Shown piece after piece: positions 27,107 to 33,477 of a DNA stretch of 43,910 nucleotides; positions within the stretch are counted from its first letter, which is position 1, and each line of letters begins with the position of its first letter. The notes under the pieces are model-generated. The model was not told the DNA's origin. It made no database searches and saw only the letters and a list, made by a program, of their open reading frames with translations. A program made the translations under genes and the position numbers. This DNA comes from Pararhodobacter aggregans (lineage in GTDB: Bacteria > Pseudomonadota > Alphaproteobacteria > Rhodobacterales > Rhodobacteraceae): assembly GCF_003075525.1 (NCBI RefSeq), contig NZ_QDDR01000020.1, positions 1 through 43,910 on the forward strand, written 5' to 3'.

Positions 27107-27976
27107 ATGGCCATCGAATCCTGGGACGAGATCCGCACCGCCTGGCATGTGGCCCGCGCGGGCACGGTCAGCGGCGCGGCCGAGGCGCTGGGCGTGCACC
27201 ACGCCACCGTCATCCGCCATATCGACGCGCTGGAGGCCCGGCTCGGCGTCAAGCTGTTCCAGCGCCACGCGCGGGGCTATACCCCGACCGAGGCGGGCTC
27301 TGCCCTGGCCCAGGTCGGCCGCGTCACCGAAGAGCAATTCGCCCAGCTCGGCACCCGCCTCACCGGCGCGGGCAGCGGCATCGAGGGCGATCTGGTGATT
27401 ACCACGTTGCCCGGCCTCGTGCCGCTCCTGCGTCCGGCGCTGATCGAGCTGAACACCCGCTATCCCGACCTCTCGCTCAGGGTCGAGACCGAGCGCCGCG
27501 TGGTCCGGCTGGAATATGGCGAGGCGCATCTGGCGGTCCGCGCCGGCAGCCGCCCGACCGAGCCCGACAACGTGGTCCAGCCCCTGCTGCGCTGCCCCGT
27601 CGCGCTGTATGCGAGCCCCGGCTACATCGCCCGCCATGGCGCCCCCAGGGACGATGCCGAACTGGCGGAGCATCTGTTCGTCGTCGAGGATGTCGAGGAT
27701 GCGCGCGCGCCCTTCGATCAATGGCTTTTGCGTCAGAAACCCCTGCCGCACATCGTCTTCCGCTCGAACGAGGCGGCAGCGCGGCGCGCGGCGATGGCCG
27801 ACGGGCTGGGGCTGGGCTTCTGGTACGGCGAAAGCGACGCGCCGGATCTGGTCGAGGTGATGCCCAGCCGCCCGGAATGGGAATTCACCGTCTGGCTGGT
27901 GACCCATGTCGACCTGCACCGCACCGCCAAGGTTCAGGCGGCGGTGACCATCATCAAGGACACGCTGAAGCAATGA
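27107..27976 (+). CDS. LysR-family transcriptional regulator
   Basis: 289 residues. The N-terminal helix-turn-helix reads VARAGTVSGAAEALGVHHATVIRHIDALEARL in part (key ATVIRHIDALE, about 37-47), followed by the LysR linker and a periplasmic-binding-like effector domain beginning LVITTLPGLVPLL. The HH-A-T-V-I-R form of the recognition helix groups it with regulators that often lack a strict LysR operator arrangement. Candidate targets are the divergent pncA and the downstream permease, whose start overlaps its stop (ATGA). Effector unknown. Confidence 0.87.
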   Translation: MAIESWDEIRTAWHVARAGTVSGAAEALGVHHATVIRHIDALEARLGVKLFQRHARGYTPTEAGSALAQVGRVTEEQFAQLGTRLTGAGSGIEGDLVITTLPGLVPLLRPALIELNTRYPDLSLRVETERRVVRLEYGEAHLAVRAGSRPTEPDNVVQPLLRCPVALYASPGYIARHGAPRDDAELAEHLFVVEDVEDARAPFDQWLLRQKPLPHIVFRSNEAAARRAAMADGLGLGFWYGESDAPDLVEVMPSRPEWEFTVWLVTHVDLHRTAKVQAAVTIIKDTLKQ

Positions 27977-28908
27977 CCGCCGCCATCGGGATGCGGGGCC
28001 GCGCCGAGGCGCTGAAGGGCCATGCGGCGATGCTGGGCTTCTCGGCCGCCGTCTCGGGCTCGTTCAGCCTGGGCGCGCTGGTGGCCAATGATATCGGCCC
28101 GGTGCCGCTGACCACGGTGCGCTTCCTCTGCGCGGCGCTGGTGCTGGCGCTGCTGGTCGCCCTTCTGCCCGGGGCCGGACGGGCCGGGCGGCGCGGCTTT
28201 GCCCGGGCCGATCTGGCGGCGCCCTGGCGCTATGGCCTGCTGGCGCTGCTCTATGGCGGCTATTTCGTCCTGATGTTCGAGGGGCTGAAGACCGCCCATC
28301 CGCTGGCCGCGGGCGCGGTCTTCACCCTGACCCCGCTGATGACCGCGGCGCTGGCCTGGCCGATGCTCGGCCAGCGGCTGCGGACCGCGGTGGCGGCGCC
28401 GCTGGCGGTCGGCGCGGCGGGCGCGGTCTGGGTGATTTTCCGCGGCGATCCCGGCGCGCTGATGCGGCTCGAGATCGGGCCGGGCGAGGCGATCTATTTC
28501 CTCGGCTGCGTGCTGCACGCGGTCTATGCGCCGATGCTGCGGCTGCTGAACCGGGGCGAAAGCGCGCTGGTCACCGCGGCGCTGGTCACCGCCTTCGGAT
28601 TCGTGCTGTTCCTTGCCTGGGGCTGGGCCGAGGTTCTGGCCACCGACTGGGCCGCCCTGCCCGCGCGGGTCTGGGTGACGCTGGCCTATCTGGCGGTCTT
28701 CGCCACCGCCTTCGCCGCCTCGGCCATGCAATTCGCCGCCCAGCGCCTGCCCGCGTCCAAGGTCATGGCCTATACCTATGCAACGCCGGTCTGGATCATC
28801 CTGTGGGAGCTGGCGCTCGGCCATGGCGTGCCGGGCTGGGTGGTGCTGCCCGGCGTGGCGCTGATCGTGGTGGCGCTTCTGATTCTGCTCAGGGGCGATC
28901 AGGCGTAA
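27973..28908 (+). CDS. EamA-family (DMT superfamily) permease
   Basis: 311 residues with about ten transmembrane segments in two EamA repeats. The first repeat has FSLGALVANDIGPVPLTTVRF and FVLMFEGLKTAHPLAAGAVFTLTPLMTA, the second FAASAMQFAAQRLPASKVMAYTYATPVWIILWE. It is an inner-membrane exporter or importer of small metabolites; the substrate is unknown. The ATG overlaps the stop of the LysR gene by four bases, so regulator and permease form one unit, a common arrangement when the regulator senses the transported compound. Confidence 0.88.
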   Translation: MTAAIGMRGRAEALKGHAAMLGFSAAVSGSFSLGALVANDIGPVPLTTVRFLCAALVLALLVALLPGAGRAGRRGFARADLAAPWRYGLLALLYGGYFVLMFEGLKTAHPLAAGAVFTLTPLMTAALAWPMLGQRLRTAVAAPLAVGAAGAVWVIFRGDPGALMRLEIGPGEAIYFLGCVLHAVYAPMLRLLNRGESALVTAALVTAFGFVLFLAWGWAEVLATDWAALPARVWVTLAYLAVFATAFAASAMQFAAQRLPASKVMAYTYATPVWIILWELALGHGVPGWVVLPGVALIVVALLILLRGDQA

Positions 28909-29064
28909 CGCGGCCCGCCCGCTCCCCCTGACCGGCCCAACCGGGCCCGTTCACACGCATATGCCTTGATTTCACGCCGCGACCGGCGCAGCATTCCTCC
29001 GTTTTCCAGACGACCTTTATTCCCGGGGCCCCGGCACCGGACCATTCAATACAAGGAGGACGCG

Positions 29065-32000
29065 ATGCTCCCTCTCCCTGGATGCCGGCCCGGCGGTCGG
29101 CGCCTGCGCGCGCTTTGCGCGGGAACCCTTGGCCTGATCGCCGCAACCTTCGCCACCAGCGCCCTCGCCTGCCCCGATCCGGGCCAGAACGGCCACATGA
29201 TCCGCTACAACGGCGCGCAATTGCAGCAGGGCCAGAGCGAGAGCGTCACGGCCGGCGGCAATGTCGATCTGGCCACCTGCCCCGGCATTCCCGGCAGCGG
29301 ACGGGTCATCAGCCGCCCCGATTTCACCCTGAATTTCGCCCGCAACAACCCGGGCTACGACCTCGAGTTGCGGGTGGACGGCACCTGCGACACGGTGCTG
29401 CTGGTCAACGGGCCGGACGGGCGCTGGTCCTTCAACGACGATGCCATCGGCCTTGATCCGCGGGTGGTGATCCCGGCGGCGGCGGTCGGCGAATATGACA
29501 TCTGGGTCGGCAGCTATGGCGCCGGAACCTGCGCCGCGACCTTGCAGATGCGGACGTCGGGCGGCGGGGCGGCGCCGCAGCCGCAGGTGATCCCGCAGCT
29601 GCCGCCGCAGATCCAGCAGATCATTCCGCAGCTGATCCCCCAGCTCACGCCCCAGACCCCTCAGCTGACGCCGCAGATCCCGCAACTGCCCCAGATCCCG
29701 CAATTGCCGCTGGCGCCGCAGCTGGTCGCCTGCCCGAATCCGGCGCTGAACGGCCAGCCGCTGAGCTATGCCGCCCAGCAGCTGCGCCAGGCCCGGAGCC
29801 ATGGCGTGACCGCTGGCGGCCCTGTCGATCTTGACGCCTGCGCCTCGGTCCCCGGGCATGGCCATGTCGCGCTCAGGGCCGATTTCACCCTGAGCCTGAC
29901 GCAGAACCTGCCGAACTATGATCTGGAAATCCGCGCCGACGGCACCTGCGATCCGGTGCTGCTGGTTCGCGCGCCGGACGGGCAATGGCATTTCAACGAC
30001 GATGCCGACGGGCTGAACTCGCGTCTGCGGCTGACTGGGGCGGCGACCGGGGAATACGACATCTGGGTCGGCACCTTTGGCGCCCAGACCTGCGCCGCCA
30101 CGCTGCGGCTGGAGACGGTCGGCGGGCTGGTCCTGCAACCGCCGCAGATCCCCCAGCCGCCGCAGATCGTGCTGTGCCCCAACCCGGCCGCCAATGGCCA
30201 GTTGCTGAGCTATTCGGCGGTGCAACTGCTGTCGCCGCGCAACCATGGCGTGGTGGCGGGCGGGGCGGCGGATCTGGCCGCCTGTGCCCAGGTCCCGGGC
30301 CATGGCCGTGTCGCCCCGAACCCCGATTTCACCCTGAACCTGACCCAGAACGCCCTGAACGCCACGCTGCAACTGGGCGTCGACGGCACCTGCGACACGG
30401 TGCTGCTGGTGCGCGGGCCGAACGGGCAATACGCCTTCAACGACGACACCAACGGGCTGGACCCCCAGCTGCGCTTCCAGGGCGCCCAGACGGGCGCGTA
30501 TGACATCTGGGTCGGCACCTTCGGCCAGCAGAGCTGCCAGGCGACGCTGATCGCCTCGACCCAGGGGCAGATTCTGCCGCAACCGCAACCGCTGCCCCAG
30601 CCCCAGCCGCAACCCCAGCCCCAGCCGCTGCCCGTGCTCTGCCCCAACCCGGCGCTGAACGGCAACGCGCTGATCTACAGCGCCGCGCAACTGCTGAACG
30701 CGCAAACGGTGCCGGTGACGGCGGGCGGCCCGGCGGACCTCACGGCCTGCGCGGCGGCGCCCGGGCATGGCCGGGTGGCCGAGCGACCCGATTTCACCCT
30801 GACGCTGACCCAGAACGCGGGCGACAGCGATCTGGAATTCCGCGTCGACGGCACCTGCGATCCGGTGCTGCTGATCCATGGGCCGGACGGGCAATATTCC
30901 TTCAACGACGATGCCAACGGGCTGAACTCGGCCCTGCGGATCGCCGCCGCCCGGCCAGGCGCCTATGACATCTGGGTCGGCACCTATGGCCAGCAGACCT
31001 GCGCCGCCTCGCTGGCGCTGCAAAGCTACGCCCCGGCGCCGCCCGCGCCCCCGGAGCCCCCACCCGCGCCCTACAAGCCCGGCGCCTGCCCCGATCCCGG
31101 CCTGACCGGCACCACGCTGAGCTATGACGCGCAGGGCCTGTGGACCGCGCAGAGCTTCCCGGTCGTCGCCGGGGGCAATCTGGGCCTGCGCGATTGCCCG
31201 CGGCTCGATGTCTACGGCAATGCCGTGCAGCAGCCGGATTTCTCGCTGACGCTGACCGGCAACCTGCCCGATCACGCGCTGGAATTCCGCGTCGAGGCCG
31301 CCTGCGACCCGGTGCTGCTGGTCCATGCGCCGGATGGCAGCTGGAGCTTCAACGACGACGCCGACGGGCTGAACTCGCGCCTGAGGCTGGAGAATGCGCC
31401 GACCGGGGTCTACGGCATCTGGGTCGGCACCTATGGCACCGCCACCTGCGAGGCGACGCTCAGCGCCGAGACCTTCTCCTCGATCCAGCCGCGGCCGCAG
31501 GGGATCTCGTATCCGCAGCCGATGGTGAACGGCGAGCGGGTCGACTGGTGCCGCACCTATGCCGCCGATTGCGGCCAGCCCGCGGCCGATGCCTTCTGCC
31601 AGCAGCAGGGCCACGGGACGGCCGCCTTCTGGCGGCAGGTTCCGGCCAGCCGGACGCTGGTTCTGGGCGGCATGCAGCTGTGCACCCAGCAGAACGGCTG
31701 CGGCGCGCTGGCCGATGTGATCTGCACCCCGGCCAGCGGCGGCAGCGGAATCGAGGTGCTTCCCGATCCCGGCAACATGACCGCCTATCGCGGCCAGACC
31801 GGCACCACCCTGCATTTCGAGGTCACCGGCTCCACCTCGGGCTCGGTCTGGGGCTCGGATGTCTATACCGACGATTCGCGCCTGGCGCGGGCCGCGGTGC
31901 ATGCCGGCCTTCTGCAGGTCGGCCAGACCGGGACCGTCGCCGTGACGGTCCTGCCCGGGCAGCAATCCTATACCGGCAGCACCCGCAACGGCGTCCAGAG

Positions 32001-32076
32001 CGCGACCTACGGGCAATGGAGCGGCAGCTACCGGTTCGAGACGCAGCCCGCCTCCCCGCCCGCGGGTGGCAAGTAA
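29065..32076 (+). CDS. Secreted repeat protein: five four-cysteine beta domains, Cys-rich domain and LCCL domain
   Basis: 1003 residues. Signal peptide about 1-35 (ends TSALA, before C36). Five copies of a ~130-residue domain follow: 36-165, 223-352, 371-499, 526-654, 675-803. Each has cysteines spaced exactly 36-36-48 and the signatures AGG-x-x-DL, PDF-[TS]-L, FNDD-x-x-GL and YDIWVG (YGIWVG in copy 5); the domain resembles pre-peptidase-C-like beta sandwiches, and the NDD-x-D/N-G loop may bind calcium. Linkers are Pro/Gln-rich (170-220, 503-525) or Pro/Ala-rich (657-672). Residues 820-888 form a six-cysteine module (C829, C836, C845, C873, C879, C887), and 900-992 an LCCL domain (WGSDVYTDDSRLARAAVHAG, YTGSTRNGV). 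No protease or lipase motif. The start has AAGGAGG. Probably an extracellular adhesin or ligand-binding protein; function unknown. Its partner gene follows. Confidence 0.85.
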   Translation: MLPLPGCRPGGRRLRALCAGTLGLIAATFATSALACPDPGQNGHMIRYNGAQLQQGQSESVTAGGNVDLATCPGIPGSGRVISRPDFTLNFARNNPGYDLELRVDGTCDTVLLVNGPDGRWSFNDDAIGLDPRVVIPAAAVGEYDIWVGSYGAGTCAATLQMRTSGGGAAPQPQVIPQLPPQIQQIIPQLIPQLTPQTPQLTPQIPQLPQIPQLPLAPQLVACPNPALNGQPLSYAAQQLRQARSHGVTAGGPVDLDACASVPGHGHVALRADFTLSLTQNLPNYDLEIRADGTCDPVLLVRAPDGQWHFNDDADGLNSRLRLTGAATGEYDIWVGTFGAQTCAATLRLETVGGLVLQPPQIPQPPQIVLCPNPAANGQLLSYSAVQLLSPRNHGVVAGGAADLAACAQVPGHGRVAPNPDFTLNLTQNALNATLQLGVDGTCDTVLLVRGPNGQYAFNDDTNGLDPQLRFQGAQTGAYDIWVGTFGQQSCQATLIASTQGQILPQPQPLPQPQPQPQPQPLPVLCPNPALNGNALIYSAAQLLNAQTVPVTAGGPADLTACAAAPGHGRVAERPDFTLTLTQNAGDSDLEFRVDGTCDPVLLIHGPDGQYSFNDDANGLNSALRIAAARPGAYDIWVGTYGQQTCAASLALQSYAPAPPAPPEPPPAPYKPGACPDPGLTGTTLSYDAQGLWTAQSFPVVAGGNLGLRDCPRLDVYGNAVQQPDFSLTLTGNLPDHALEFRVEAACDPVLLVHAPDGSWSFNDDADGLNSRLRLENAPTGVYGIWVGTYGTATCEATLSAETFSSIQPRPQGISYPQPMVNGERVDWCRTYAADCGQPAADAFCQQQGHGTAAFWRQVPASRTLVLGGMQLCTQQNGCGALADVICTPASGGSGIEVLPDPGNMTAYRGQTGTTLHFEVTGSTSGSVWGSDVYTDDSRLARAAVHAGLLQVGQTGTVAVTVLPGQQSYTGSTRNGVQSATYGQWSGSYRFETQPASPPAGGK

Positions 32077-32085
32077 CCCCCGCGC

Positions 32086-32118
32086 CGGGCCCCGGTTGAA
32101 CCTTTGGGCCGGGGCCCG
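32086..32118 (+). terminator. Perfect hairpin between the two LCCL-protein genes
   Basis: CGGGCCCCGG (32086-32095) pairs with CCGGGGCCCG (32109-32118), 9 bases after the first stop. No T tract follows, so it may be a partial terminator or an mRNA-stabilising element that sets the ratio of the two proteins. Confidence 0.5.
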
Positions 32119-32175
32119 CGACAGACAGCCACCGGACGGCCGCGCCAGGCGGCCGCCCCCTCACAGAGAGACCGC

Positions 32176-33318
32176 ATGACCCTGTCTTCCCTTTCCCTCC
32201 GCCCGCTGGCCTTCGGGCTGGTAACCCTCTCCGCCGGTTTCGGCGCCTCGGCCGCGCTGGCTTGCCCGGACTGGAGCCTGACCGGCACGCCCATCAGCTA
32301 TTCCGCGCAGGACCTCGGCCGACCGCAGGCCGTGGGCGTGATCGCGGGCGGCAACGTCGATCTGGCGGGCTGCCCGATGCCCGGGCATGGCTATGTCATC
32401 ACCCAGCCGGATTTCGATTTCAGCTTCACCGACAACAGCGCCCGTCAGGACCTGACCCTCAGGGTCGAGGCGACCTGCGACACGGTGCTTCTGATCAACG
32501 ACGCCACCGGCACCTGGCATTTCAGCGACGACGAGGGCGGCAACTTCAATCCGGCGATCACCCTGCCCGGCGCCCCCGCCGGGGCCTATGACATCTGGGT
32601 CGGCACCTTCGGCCAATCGACCTGCGAGGCGCAGCTGATCCTGTCGGCTGGCAGCGGCGGCGGTGGGGCAGGCACCGCGCCCGGCTATCCGCCCGCGCCC
32701 GGCAACATGACCACCTACCGCGGCCAGGTCGGCCAGACGCTGACCTTCACCGTCACCGGTGCGACCAGCGGCTCGGTCTGGGGCTCGGGGGTCTATACCG
32801 ACGATTCCTCGGTCGCCGCAGCCGCCGTCCATGCCGGGGTCATCCGCCCGGGCGAGACCGCGCCGGTCGAAGTGACCGTCCTGCCGGGCCAGCAGAGCTA
32901 CAACGGGTCGACCCAGAACGGCGTGCAATCGTCGAACTACGGCAGCTGGTCGGGCAGCTACAGCTTTCCCGCCGCCGCGCCCGCGGCGATGGCCGATCCG
33001 GGCAACCTGACCAGCTACCGCGACCGCGTGGGCCAGACGCTGACCTTCCTCCTGACCGGCTCGACCTCGGGTTCGGTCTGGGGCTCGGGCCCCTATACCG
33101 ACGATTCCTCGCTGGCGACCGCCGCCGTGCATGCGGGCGTCCTGCAGCCGGGCCAGAGCGGCCCCGTCGAGGTCACGATCCTGCCGGGCGAGCAGAGCTA
33201 CAGCGGCTCGGCCCAGAACGGCGTGCAATCGTCGAATTACGGGACCTGGCAGGGCAGCTACAGCTTCCCCGCCGCCCCGGCCGTCTCGGCCCCGGCGCAG
33301 CCCTCGGCTGGCAAGTGA
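32176..33318 (+). CDS. Secreted protein: one four-cysteine beta domain and two LCCL domains
   Basis: 380 residues. Signal peptide about 1-29 (ends ASAALA, before C30). Residues 30-157 are one copy of the four-cysteine domain of the upstream protein (C30, C66, C101, C150; spacing 36-35-49; AGGNVDLAGC, AYDIWVGTFG). After a Gly-rich linker come two LCCL domains, 174-264 and 274-364, each with GSVWGS-x-x-YTDDSS, AAAVHAGV or TAAVHAGV, LPG-[QE]-QSY and QNGVQSSNYG-x-W-x-GSYSF. The two LCCL copies are very alike and contain no cysteine, unlike the disulfide-bonded animal LCCL domains. The start has GAGAG nearby. It lies 99 bases after the larger paralogue, and both C-termini end in GGK or AGK. Probably extracellular; function unknown. 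Confidence 0.83.
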   Translation: MTLSSLSLRPLAFGLVTLSAGFGASAALACPDWSLTGTPISYSAQDLGRPQAVGVIAGGNVDLAGCPMPGHGYVITQPDFDFSFTDNSARQDLTLRVEATCDTVLLINDATGTWHFSDDEGGNFNPAITLPGAPAGAYDIWVGTFGQSTCEAQLILSAGSGGGGAGTAPGYPPAPGNMTTYRGQVGQTLTFTVTGATSGSVWGSGVYTDDSSVAAAAVHAGVIRPGETAPVEVTVLPGQQSYNGSTQNGVQSSNYGSWSGSYSFPAAAPAAMADPGNLTSYRDRVGQTLTFLLTGSTSGSVWGSGPYTDDSSLATAAVHAGVLQPGQSGPVEVTILPGEQSYSGSAQNGVQSSNYGTWQGSYSFPAAPAVSAPAQPSAGK

Positions 33319-33342
33319 GCCTGCAGTCGGCATGAAGACCGG

Positions 33343-33365
33343 AAGGGGCCCCGACGGGCCCCTTT
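33343..33365 (+). terminator. Rho-independent terminator after the LCCL pair
   Basis: AAGGGGCCC (33343-33351), loop CGAC, GGGCCCCTTT (33356-33365). A good stem with a short T run, 25 bases after the stop. Confidence 0.8.
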
Positions 33366-33477
33366 CGCTTTCACAGGGCGGATCGGGAGGTGCGGACATG
33401 CGCCCGGCGGGCCTCCGGACTGGACTTGCGGCGCCCCGGCGGGCATGAGGGGGCGTTGCCGTGAGAGAAGCCCGCCG

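What the first reader, a model, noticed from the sequence alone, without database searches (positions are those of the whole stretch)
29065..33318. Tandem pair of exported proteins that combine a four-cysteine beta repeat with LCCL domains
Seen: two adjacent secreted proteins share a ~130-residue domain (5 copies and 1 copy) and C-terminal LCCL-type domains (1 and 2 copies). Known: LCCL domains are best known from animal extracellular proteins (Limulus factor C, cochlin, Lgl1), where they carry disulfides; the copies here have no cysteine. Inference: the pair is an extracellular binding or adhesion module, perhaps with the large protein as a fibre-like scaffold and the small one as a partner. 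The gene order, shared termini (GGK/AGK) and single final terminator suggest co-expression. I know of no described function for this combination.
Basis: partly seen in the sequence, partly recalled or inferred. Interest (0 to 1): 0.75.

Follow-up and report, generated by a model that had tools for sequence, protein, structure and literature searches.

The report
Lysine-tailed LCCL repeat protein pair
Two neighbouring exported proteins of a Rhodobacter-like bacterium combine small disulfide-type beta domains with a cysteine-free form of an animal-type LCCL domain, and both end in a single conserved lysine that unrelated envelope proteins of the same bacteria share, which may be a tag for attachment to the cell wall.

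Summary
Gene A (29065-32076, 1003 aa) has five copies of a four-cysteine domain and one LCCL domain; gene B (32176-33318, 380 aa) has one and two. All three LCCL copies pass the Pfam cut-off and lack cysteine; the modelled one matches cochlin's LCCL. The four-cysteine domain fits no Pfam family; its confident model is a PPC/PliG-like beta sandwich. The genome is a Pararhodobacter. Cysteine-free LCCL is widespread in bacteria; fusion with the four-cysteine domain was seen only in Pararhodobacter and Rhodobacteraceae strain WD3A24. The locus was found in 9 of 18 Pararhodobacter genomes, next to an EamA gene; five have both genes, so they are associated but separable.

The main new result: the proteins end in fast-changing Pro/Ala-rich tails whose last residue stays lysine (22 of 24). 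Two unrelated exported families do likewise: a peptidoglycan-binding protein (9 of 9 locus-bearing genomes, 0 of 4 others) and a vWA protein (5 of 5 close orthologues). Lysine ends only 1.5% of sampled genes. Most likely (inferred, about 0.4) it is a Braun-lipoprotein-type acceptor for L,D-transpeptidases, tethering a glycan-binding module to peptidoglycan. Free secretion as an adhesin, or protease protection, remain rivals.

The parts
29065..32076 (+). Gene A, large protein, 1003 aa: Sec signal, 5 P domains, six-Cys segment, 1 LCCL, lysine-ended tail
   Evidence: tandem orthologues; dN/dS 0.17
29065..29166 (+). Signal peptide of A (cleavage near ALA|C; by eye)
   Evidence: sequence; exported-like in the heuristic. 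The Cys after it is C1 of the repeat and is not always next to the cleavage site in orthologues (by eye), so a lipobox is unlikely
29167..29553 (+). P domain 1 (four-Cys, PPC/PliG-like)
   Evidence: alignment; profile
29728..30114 (+). P domain 2; the one modelled (mean pLDDT 94.7)
30172..30558 (+). P domain 3
30637..31023 (+). P domain 4
31084..31470 (+). P domain 5
31549..31725 (+). Six-Cys segment aa 829-887, no Pfam match; also in G130, G128 and one G131 gene
   Evidence: modelled with low confidence
31759..32049 (+). LCCL domain of A, Cys-free
   Evidence: 60.5 bits; model pLDDT about 90, top PDB hit 1jbi TMt 0.80
32050..32073 (+). C-terminal tail of A, ends PPAGGK
32083..32120 (+). Hairpin between the genes, no T run
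   Evidence: -30 kcal/mol, z -1.64
32176..33318 (+). Gene B, small protein, 380 aa: Sec signal, 1 P domain, 2 LCCL, lysine-ended tail
32176..32259 (+). Signal peptide of B (by eye)
   Evidence: sequence; heuristic
32260..32646 (+). P domain of B
32695..32970 (+). LCCL 1 of B, Cys-free
32995..33279 (+). LCCL 2 of B, Cys-free
33280..33315 (+). C-terminal tail of B, ends QPSAGK
33340..33367 (+). Terminator-like hairpin after B
   Evidence: z -2.59; not found by the consensus scan
27970..28908 (+). EamA transporter gene, the constant upstream neighbour in the genus (context, not part of the system; start not determined)

Best explanation
The pair are exported envelope proteins. Each consists of one or more PPC/PliG-like beta sandwiches with two likely disulfides (C1-C2 and C3-C4), strung in A on Pro/Gln-rich spacers, followed by one or two cysteine-free LCCL domains that most likely bind a polysaccharide, and a flexible Pro/Ala-rich tail whose terminal lysine is under strong selection. 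Shown: domain identities, folds by model, locus conservation, repeat-number change, conservation of the terminal lysine, the same tail end on two unrelated exported families, nine YkuD domains in the genome. Inferred: the lysine is the acceptor for an L,D-transpeptidase that joins its side chain to peptidoglycan, as in Braun's lipoprotein and Dickeya OutB, so LCCL and P domains are held at the cell wall, where LCCL contacts glycan or LPS and the P array acts as a spacer or second binding surface.
For: LCCL: Pfam 60.5 and 120.4 bits; top structure 1jbi, TMt 0.80. P domain: mean pLDDT 94.7, best matches PliG 4dzg and PPC 5sv5. Disulfide pairing: of 188 aligned P stretches 137 have all four Cys and 5 keep C1 and C2 without C3 and C4 (includes redundant and cut copies). 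Tail: 22 of 24 end in K, with no K among the 324 other tail residues. Pattern [PA]-[APST]-[AGS]-G-K-stop hits 4 places in the 5.08 Mb genome, reversed control 0; all 4 are C-termini of proteins with a signal peptide by eye: A, B, the P-P paralogue and a PG_binding_1 protein. Orthologues of the latter have rewritten tails but end in K in 9 of 9 genomes with the LCCL locus, 0 of 4 without. A vWA protein ends in K in 5 of 5 close orthologues. Background: K ends 15 of 986 roughly called genes and 5 of 141 exported-like ones, 2 of those 5 being A and B, while R ends 22 of the 141, so Lys, not just charge, seems kept. Nine YkuD domains. PMC12274547 (abstract, introduction, two results sections, discussion read): a single C-terminal Lys is necessary and sufficient for attachment, and the box tolerates much substitution. 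Cochlin binds heparin-type glycans (PMC9333281, abstract); LCCL of akhirin and cochlin is said to bind bacteria and, for cochlin, sulfated glycans (PMC12839204, passages); Lgl1, with two LCCL domains, binds lipid A (PMC10892792, section 4).
Against: No experiment shows attachment. The tails lack the Arg-Lys, Lys-Lys or Tyr-Thr-Lys context of known Lpp boxes. In genomes without the locus the peptidoglycan-binding orthologue ends in D (3) or N (1), which a protease-protection reading also allows; one such genome (G132) nevertheless has a P-P protein ending in K. PMC12274547 says over 20% of E. coli periplasmic proteins and lipoproteins end in Lys, so a terminal Lys is no proof. Alphaproteobacterial anchoring described in the two papers seen uses N-termini of beta-barrels (PMC12274547 introduction; PMC12729407 passages). 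The tail-bearing genomes are related, so the counts are not independent. LCCL ligand binding is carried over from animal proteins with disulfides. The fold match of P is generic (GOLD, CUB, C2-like and other beta sandwiches rank close behind). A fully extended A might exceed the periplasm's width (estimate, not computed).
Confidence: 0.42

Rival explanations
1. Freely secreted or surface-displayed adhesin or matrix pair: A is a fibre of PPC-like beads with an LCCL tip, B a soluble partner or cross-linker. The terminal lysine is a by-product or serves an unknown export step.
For: Repeat number differs between species (2 to 6 P domains; 3 against 4 in G136 and P. zhoushanensis), typical of surface-exposed stalks. 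LCCL sits in extracellular adhesive proteins in animals and Plasmodium (PMC10892792, section 4 and passages). Cochlin, an LCCL protein, binds sulfated glycans (PMC9333281, abstract).
Against: No outer-membrane translocation signal was recognised by eye (not searched for systematically). Does not explain why the last residue stays lysine in rewritten tails, nor why a peptidoglycan-binding protein shares it.
Confidence: 0.28
2. The proteins are periplasmic and unanchored; the terminal lysine protects a disordered tail against tail-specific proteases (Prc/CtpA), which prefer non-polar C-termini (recalled).
For: Pro/Ala-rich tails should be flexible; orthologues of the peptidoglycan-binding protein in the other group end in D or N, also polar. 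In E. coli a terminal Lys is common in periplasmic proteins (PMC12274547, discussion).
Against: R, D or E should serve as well, and R is the commonest last residue of exported-like proteins here (22 of 141), yet none of the 24 tails counted ends in R. Five other exported-like proteins with Pro/Ala/Ser/Thr/Gly/Gln/Asn-rich ends in the sample end in N, N, E, N and R.
Confidence: 0.2
3. The P domains are inhibitors, in the manner of PliG, of lysozyme or an endogenous peptidoglycan enzyme, and LCCL positions them.
For: Best Foldseek match of the P model is PliG (E 2.8e-4); single P-domain proteins with a signal peptide by eye occur in many of the Rhodobacteraceae loci fetched.
Against: Only 15% identity, TM about 0.5, equally close to PPC, collagen-binding, GOLD and other beta sandwiches; the inhibitory loop was not tested.
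Confidence: 0.07

Closest known systems
LCCL module (PF03815) of cochlin, Limulus factor C, Lgl1
   Same: Profile score far over the cut-off, fold (1jbi TMt 0.80), Y...S...AAVHAG motif with the conserved His, export
   Different: No cysteine, where the animal module has four; bacterial; fused to P domains
Rxt3 (PF08642; 8i03 chain I)
   Same: Second-best profile and structure match
   Different: Subunit of the yeast SIN3L complex (8i03 title), a histone-deacetylation protein; not exported
PPC domain (PF04151) and clostridial collagen-binding domains
   Same: Beta-sandwich fold; NDD and G-x-Y motifs (likeness by eye, recalled)
   Different: Below the Pfam cut-off (13.2 of 25.9 bits); two likely disulfides; not at the C-terminus of a protease here
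PliG, periplasmic g-type lysozyme inhibitor (4dzg)
   Same: Top Foldseek match of the P model
   Different: 15% identity; inhibitory site untested; the P domain also occurs as a tandem repeat
Braun's lipoprotein (Lpp) and Dickeya OutB
   Same: Works-like candidate: C-terminal Lys on a flexible end, YkuD enzymes present
   Different: No lipid or membrane anchor, no Lpp box; attachment not shown
Plasmodium CCp/LAP proteins
   Same: Exported multi-domain proteins with LCCL among adhesive domains, without membrane anchor (PMC10892792, passages)
   Different: Other partner domains, eukaryotic; four-Cys LCCL as the review describes the module

Membership tests
LCCL domain (PF03815) | Profile score over the curated cut-off of 22.6 bits | tested here: met
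   A 60.5 bits, B 120.4 bits over two stretches
LCCL domain (PF03815) | LCCL fold | tested here: met
   1jbi rank 1, TMt 0.80; LCCL part of the model pLDDT about 90. Model of the A copy only; the B copies are 67-75% identical
LCCL domain (PF03815) | Four conserved cysteines (PMC10892792, section 4 read) | tested here: not met
   0 Cys in all three copies. Filed as the Cys-free bacterial branch of the superfamily, not as the canonical animal module
LCCL domain (PF03815) | His motif YxxxSxxCxAAVHxGVI | tested here: inconclusive
   YTDDS....AAVHAG(V/L)(I/L): His kept, Cys lost
PPC domain (PF04151) | Profile score over the cut-off of 25.9 bits | tested here: not met
   13.2 bits, E 0.17; 1 of 34 P domains matches, E 0.12; the best Pfam match of any P domain is PLipase_C_C, E 0.0048, 4 of 34
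PPC domain (PF04151) | PPC-like beta-sandwich fold | tested here: met
   5sv5 E 4.5e-4, prob 1.00, TMt 0.62
PliG lysozyme inhibitor | Inhibits g-type lysozyme | not testable with these tools
   Fold likeness only
Lpp-type peptidoglycan-attached protein | C-terminal lysine kept across orthologues | tested here: met
   22 of 24 tails
Lpp-type peptidoglycan-attached protein | L,D-transpeptidases (YkuD) in the genome | tested here: met
   9 matches over the cut-off
Lpp-type peptidoglycan-attached protein | Lipidated N-terminus | tested here: not met
   By eye only: the Cys after the signal peptide is repeat Cys C1, at variable distance from the likely cleavage site in orthologues
Lpp-type peptidoglycan-attached protein | Covalent bond of the terminal Lys to diaminopimelate | not testable with these tools
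   Needs muropeptide mass spectrometry

The most novel reading that the evidence does not exclude
A subgroup of Pararhodobacter uses a free C-terminal lysine on a Pro/Ala-rich tail as a general cell-wall address: unrelated non-lipidated exported proteins (P/LCCL repeat proteins, a PG_binding_1 protein, a vWA protein) are joined through it to peptidoglycan by L,D-transpeptidases. This would be a multi-substrate, Gram-negative counterpart of sortase anchoring, displaying LCCL glycan binders on the wall.
Probability: 0.3. Interest if true: 0.82.

Novelty: new variant of a known kind. Interest (0 to 1): 0.6.

Why it matters
If the lysine is an attachment site, it answers a question left open by the OutB paper (PMC12274547): whether other periplasmic proteins are tethered to peptidoglycan through a C-terminal lysine. 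It names three unrelated families in a genome where terminal lysine is rare, so one mass-spectrometry experiment could test the idea. Independently, the pair shows a disulfide-free LCCL in exported bacterial proteins and gives a fold to a four-cysteine domain found in a fifth of the Rhodobacteraceae genera sampled (own included, LCCL matches counted in) but with no Pfam family.

Tried and rejected
Alignment A3 mixed P and LCCL fragments and set P halves on LCCL columns; dropped, not modelled. PHROGs matches (three weak families for A, none for B): the best falls largely on a Pro/Gln-rich linker; not pursued. Phage origin: no match in the phage collection, plasmids only two short LCCL hits in Rhodococcus; not supported. 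Lipoprotein reading: the 'ALAC' at the signal-peptide end resembles a lipobox, but that Cys is C1 of every repeat; rejected by eye. NCBIfam gave only matches far under their cut-offs. Viral fold search: three hits under 0.001, all uncharacterised proteins. The 999-aa antisense ORF (29017-32016) is taken as a high-GC by-product. The promoter/terminator scan found nothing. Literature on bacterial LCCL: listings only; none of the 30 of 120, 15 of 22,597 and 10 of 5,994 papers (none of these ten holds 'LCCL') has a title about a bacterial LCCL protein; one search was badly set (word stems with whole-word matching) and says nothing. TadE, C-type-lectin and lytic-transglycosylase likenesses in relatives are by eye; Pfam did not give them at E 1e-4.
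Full report
What is there. Gene A and gene B lie in tandem on the + strand with a 99-bp gap. Six copies of a ~128-residue domain ('P') with four cysteines (five in A, one in B) share 44-62% identity, and three LCCL copies share 67-75%. PF03815 reports LCCL at 60.5 and 120.4 bits against a cut-off of 22.6; in the whole genome only these three copies pass the cut-off. Rxt3 (PF08642) is the second profile hit. The PDB sequence search gives cochlin LCCL and fission-yeast Rxt3.

Folds. An alignment of 34 P domains gave a model with mean pLDDT 94.7. Foldseek against the PDB has four hits under 0.001: PliG, the PPC domain of a collagenase, a subtilase and a human GOLD domain; collagen-binding domains, CUB, C2-like and enterotoxin C-terminal domains follow closely. 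TM-scores are about 0.5, so this is a fold class, not a family. Among 34 P domains the best Pfam match is PLipase_C_C at E 0.0048 (4 of 34), PPC 0.12 (1 of 34), and no PDB sequence matches at E 1. The model of P5 + six-Cys segment + LCCL is confident for LCCL, moderate for P and poor for the six-Cys segment; its top hit is 1jbi, TMt 0.80. In 188 P stretches from the fetched loci (redundant and truncated copies included) 137 have all four Cys, 5 keep C1 and C2 without C3 and C4, 37 show none (lost or cut), and 9 are cut or irregular; this suggests pairs C1-C2 and C3-C4.

Where it occurs. The named-genome scan places the organism in Pararhodobacter (one contig 99% alike over the LCCL query; P. 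zhoushanensis, P. marinus, Pararhodobacter sp. CCB-MM2 and Rhodobacter sp. NTK016B among the next). In the family, PF03815 is found in 10 of 120 genomes and a B-like match (P or LCCL) in 24 of 120, own included both times. In the 34 regions that I fetched from those results (31 from other genera, 3 from the own genome), no open frame holds both domains; not every matching place was fetched. P reaches E 1e-6 in 15 of 289 genomes of the class and LCCL E 1e-5 in 3 of 299 of the phylum, own included. Of 42 LCCL loci from the scan with a Cys-free query, 25 have a Cys-free copy, 18 outside the Rhodobacteraceae set: Phycisphaerales, Fermentibacteria, Planctomycetes, Clostridia, Spirochaetales and others. 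Twelve open frames in those 42 loci hold both domains; they lie in contigs that match, by length, Pararhodobacter genomes, in P. zhoushanensis, or in Rhodobacteraceae bacterium WD3A24. Among 20 relatives scanned with Pfam (chosen by me, not all LCCL proteins), LCCL partner domains include SH3_3, BlaR1-type M56, Cu_amine_oxidN1, TSP3 and DUF6777.

The locus through the genus. In 18 Pararhodobacter genomes searched with B at E 1e-5 (several are incomplete) I found the locus in 9, next to the EamA gene in all nine (own; eight others), and in P. zhoushanensis too. WD3A24 has no EamA in the fetched stretch. A and B both occur in own, G130, G136, G128 and G123 (and P. zhoushanensis); G120 has B alone; G121 and G135 have one large protein with a further C-terminal stretch and no B seen; G131 (64% complete) has four such genes. 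P repeats number 2 to 6 in large proteins; the repeat tree suggests species-specific duplications, e.g. 3 against 4 copies in G136 and P. zhoushanensis and a near-identical pair in WD3A24. A paralogous two-gene locus without LCCL (P + P-P) lies elsewhere in own (C6) and in seven other genomes of the genus.

The lysine. Of 40 P-containing proteins tabulated (genus, P. zhoushanensis and WD3A24) 24 have a tail of 5 to 60 residues after the last domain; 22 of these end in K, and the other 324 tail residues contain none. The two exceptions are a P-P protein of G134 (ends GP) and a single-P protein of G136 with an atypical end. The K ends include AGK, GGK, PGK, QGK, SGK, NGK, GSK, PSK, LSK and PVK. 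Left out by the length limits: ten single-P proteins with ends of 3 or 4 residues (mostly ETF); two G131 proteins with 257 and 368 further residues, which end in K; three large proteins of G121, G135 and G131 that end in another domain and in R; the P-P-LCCL protein of WD3A24 (4 residues, R). Two LCCL proteins without P (L100, L101) were not in the table and end in Q and N. A strict DNA pattern for [PA]-[APST]-[AGS]-G-K-stop hits 4 places in the own genome with 0 in the reversed control: A, B, the P-P paralogue, and a 428-aa protein with a signal peptide by eye and a PG_binding_1 domain (E 1.3e-8). In four sister genomes it hits 17 places (reversed control 4); 5 lie in frames of 400 aa or more: three B orthologues, one PG-binding orthologue and one vWA protein; the other 12 lie in frames of 80 aa or less. 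Allowing K, E, D, Q, N or H as last residue gives 36 hits in the own genome (reversed control 6); of 32 non-K hits 28 came with loci, 3 of them in frames of 200 aa or more and one of these with a Pro/Ala tail, ending in N.

Independent families. The PG-binding protein was found in 13 of 18 genomes. It ends in K in own, G130, G120, G121, G123, G128, G131, G135 and G136, with different tails (e.g. PYSK, PNSK, AVTK, PSGK, APEK), and in D, D, D and N in G122, G126, G129 and G132; G126 and G129 have a Lys two residues before the end. These two sets are exactly the genomes with and without the LCCL locus among those 13; a gene tree of this protein groups the four non-K sequences, so this may be one gain or loss. 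One inconsistency: G132, without the locus, has a P-P protein ending in PVK. The vWA protein was found in 10 of 18 genomes; of 13 loci read, the five close orthologues (own, G130, G123, G128, G136) end in K, three distant ones end in P, E and E, and five ran off before the stop. With a rough gene caller on 1.2 Mb plus the window, K ends 15 of 986 genes; of 141 exported-like genes 5 end in K (two being A and B) and 22 in R. So lysine is rare and not the default end of a Pro/Ala-rich tail.

Interpretation. A side-chain amine kept at the very end of an otherwise unconstrained tail, in preference to the much commoner arginine, on proteins that include a peptidoglycan binder, fits an acceptor for L,D-transpeptidases. 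In Dickeya, OutB is joined to peptidoglycan by its C-terminal Lys, one Lys is necessary and sufficient, the box tolerates substitution, and the authors suggest that other periplasmic proteins may be tethered likewise (PMC12274547: abstract, introduction, two results sections and discussion read). The own genome has nine YkuD domains. A review of these enzymes lists C-terminal attachment sites for E. coli and Dickeya Lpp, OutB and Legionella Lpg1810, and N-terminal attachment for a Brucella outer-membrane protein (PMC12729407: passages). (search for Rhodobacter and C-terminal lysine) was seen as a listing only. For LCCL, cochlin binds heparin-like glycans (PMC9333281, abstract), Lgl1 binds lipid A, and interactions with bacterial wall components are described for all three founding proteins (PMC10892792, section 4, and passages); akhirin LCCL binds bacteria (PMC12839204, passages). 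Whether the Cys-free form keeps such binding is unknown.

Weight. The domains and their conservation are certain. The lysine conservation is strong but rests on related genomes. The anchoring step is inference; I put it at about 0.4 within the best explanation and 0.3 for the general-address version. Free secretion and protease protection stay open.

Noticed in passing
32176-33315 against G130 (L088/L108): Gene B differs from G130 at dS 0.063, whereas EamA, ThiF, MeaB and dUTPase differ at 0.23-0.25 and gene A at 0.31: B looks recently exchanged between lineages and A somewhat more divergent.
   Followed up: partly
L177 232-1518; L317: Exported PG_binding_1 protein and exported vWA protein that share the lysine-ended Pro/Ala tail.
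   Followed up: yes
L093 (G131:C549): Four tandem P/LCCL genes in one genome, one with a C-type-lectin-like stretch (by eye; no Pfam match at 1e-4) and a second six-Cys segment like that of gene A.
   Followed up: partly
31549-31725: Six-Cys segment without Pfam match, recurring in G130, G128 and G131; fold undetermined.
   Followed up: partly
L112, L133: In a Phycisphaerales and a Planctomycetaceae MAG, Cys-free LCCL domains follow a BlaR1-type M56 peptidase domain: a possible sensor role of LCCL.
   Followed up: no
L038 3229-4596: A Rhodobacteraceae protein with a P-like domain in front of a trypsin domain.
   Followed up: no
L056 5337-7289: Own-genome 651-aa open frame with a C-terminal P domain and an N-terminus that looks like a TadE-type pseudopilin by eye; Pfam gave no match at 1e-4.
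   Followed up: partly
L318/L328 (G136): The vWA gene lies in two reading frames in G136, so it is frameshifted there or the assembly has an error.
   Followed up: no
L275, L277, L282: Three more exported-like own-genome proteins ending in K, each with Pro near the end (SPAEAPGK, PSPRPMK, PGSPSMK): possible further carriers of the tail.
   Followed up: no
32083-32120: GC-rich hairpin without T run between the two genes, possibly affecting the ratio of A to B.
   Followed up: no
G000:C10:11923-12957: Own-genome 617-aa open frame with three partial P-like matches (E 1e-11 to 3e-7), a further distant member not examined.
   Followed up: no
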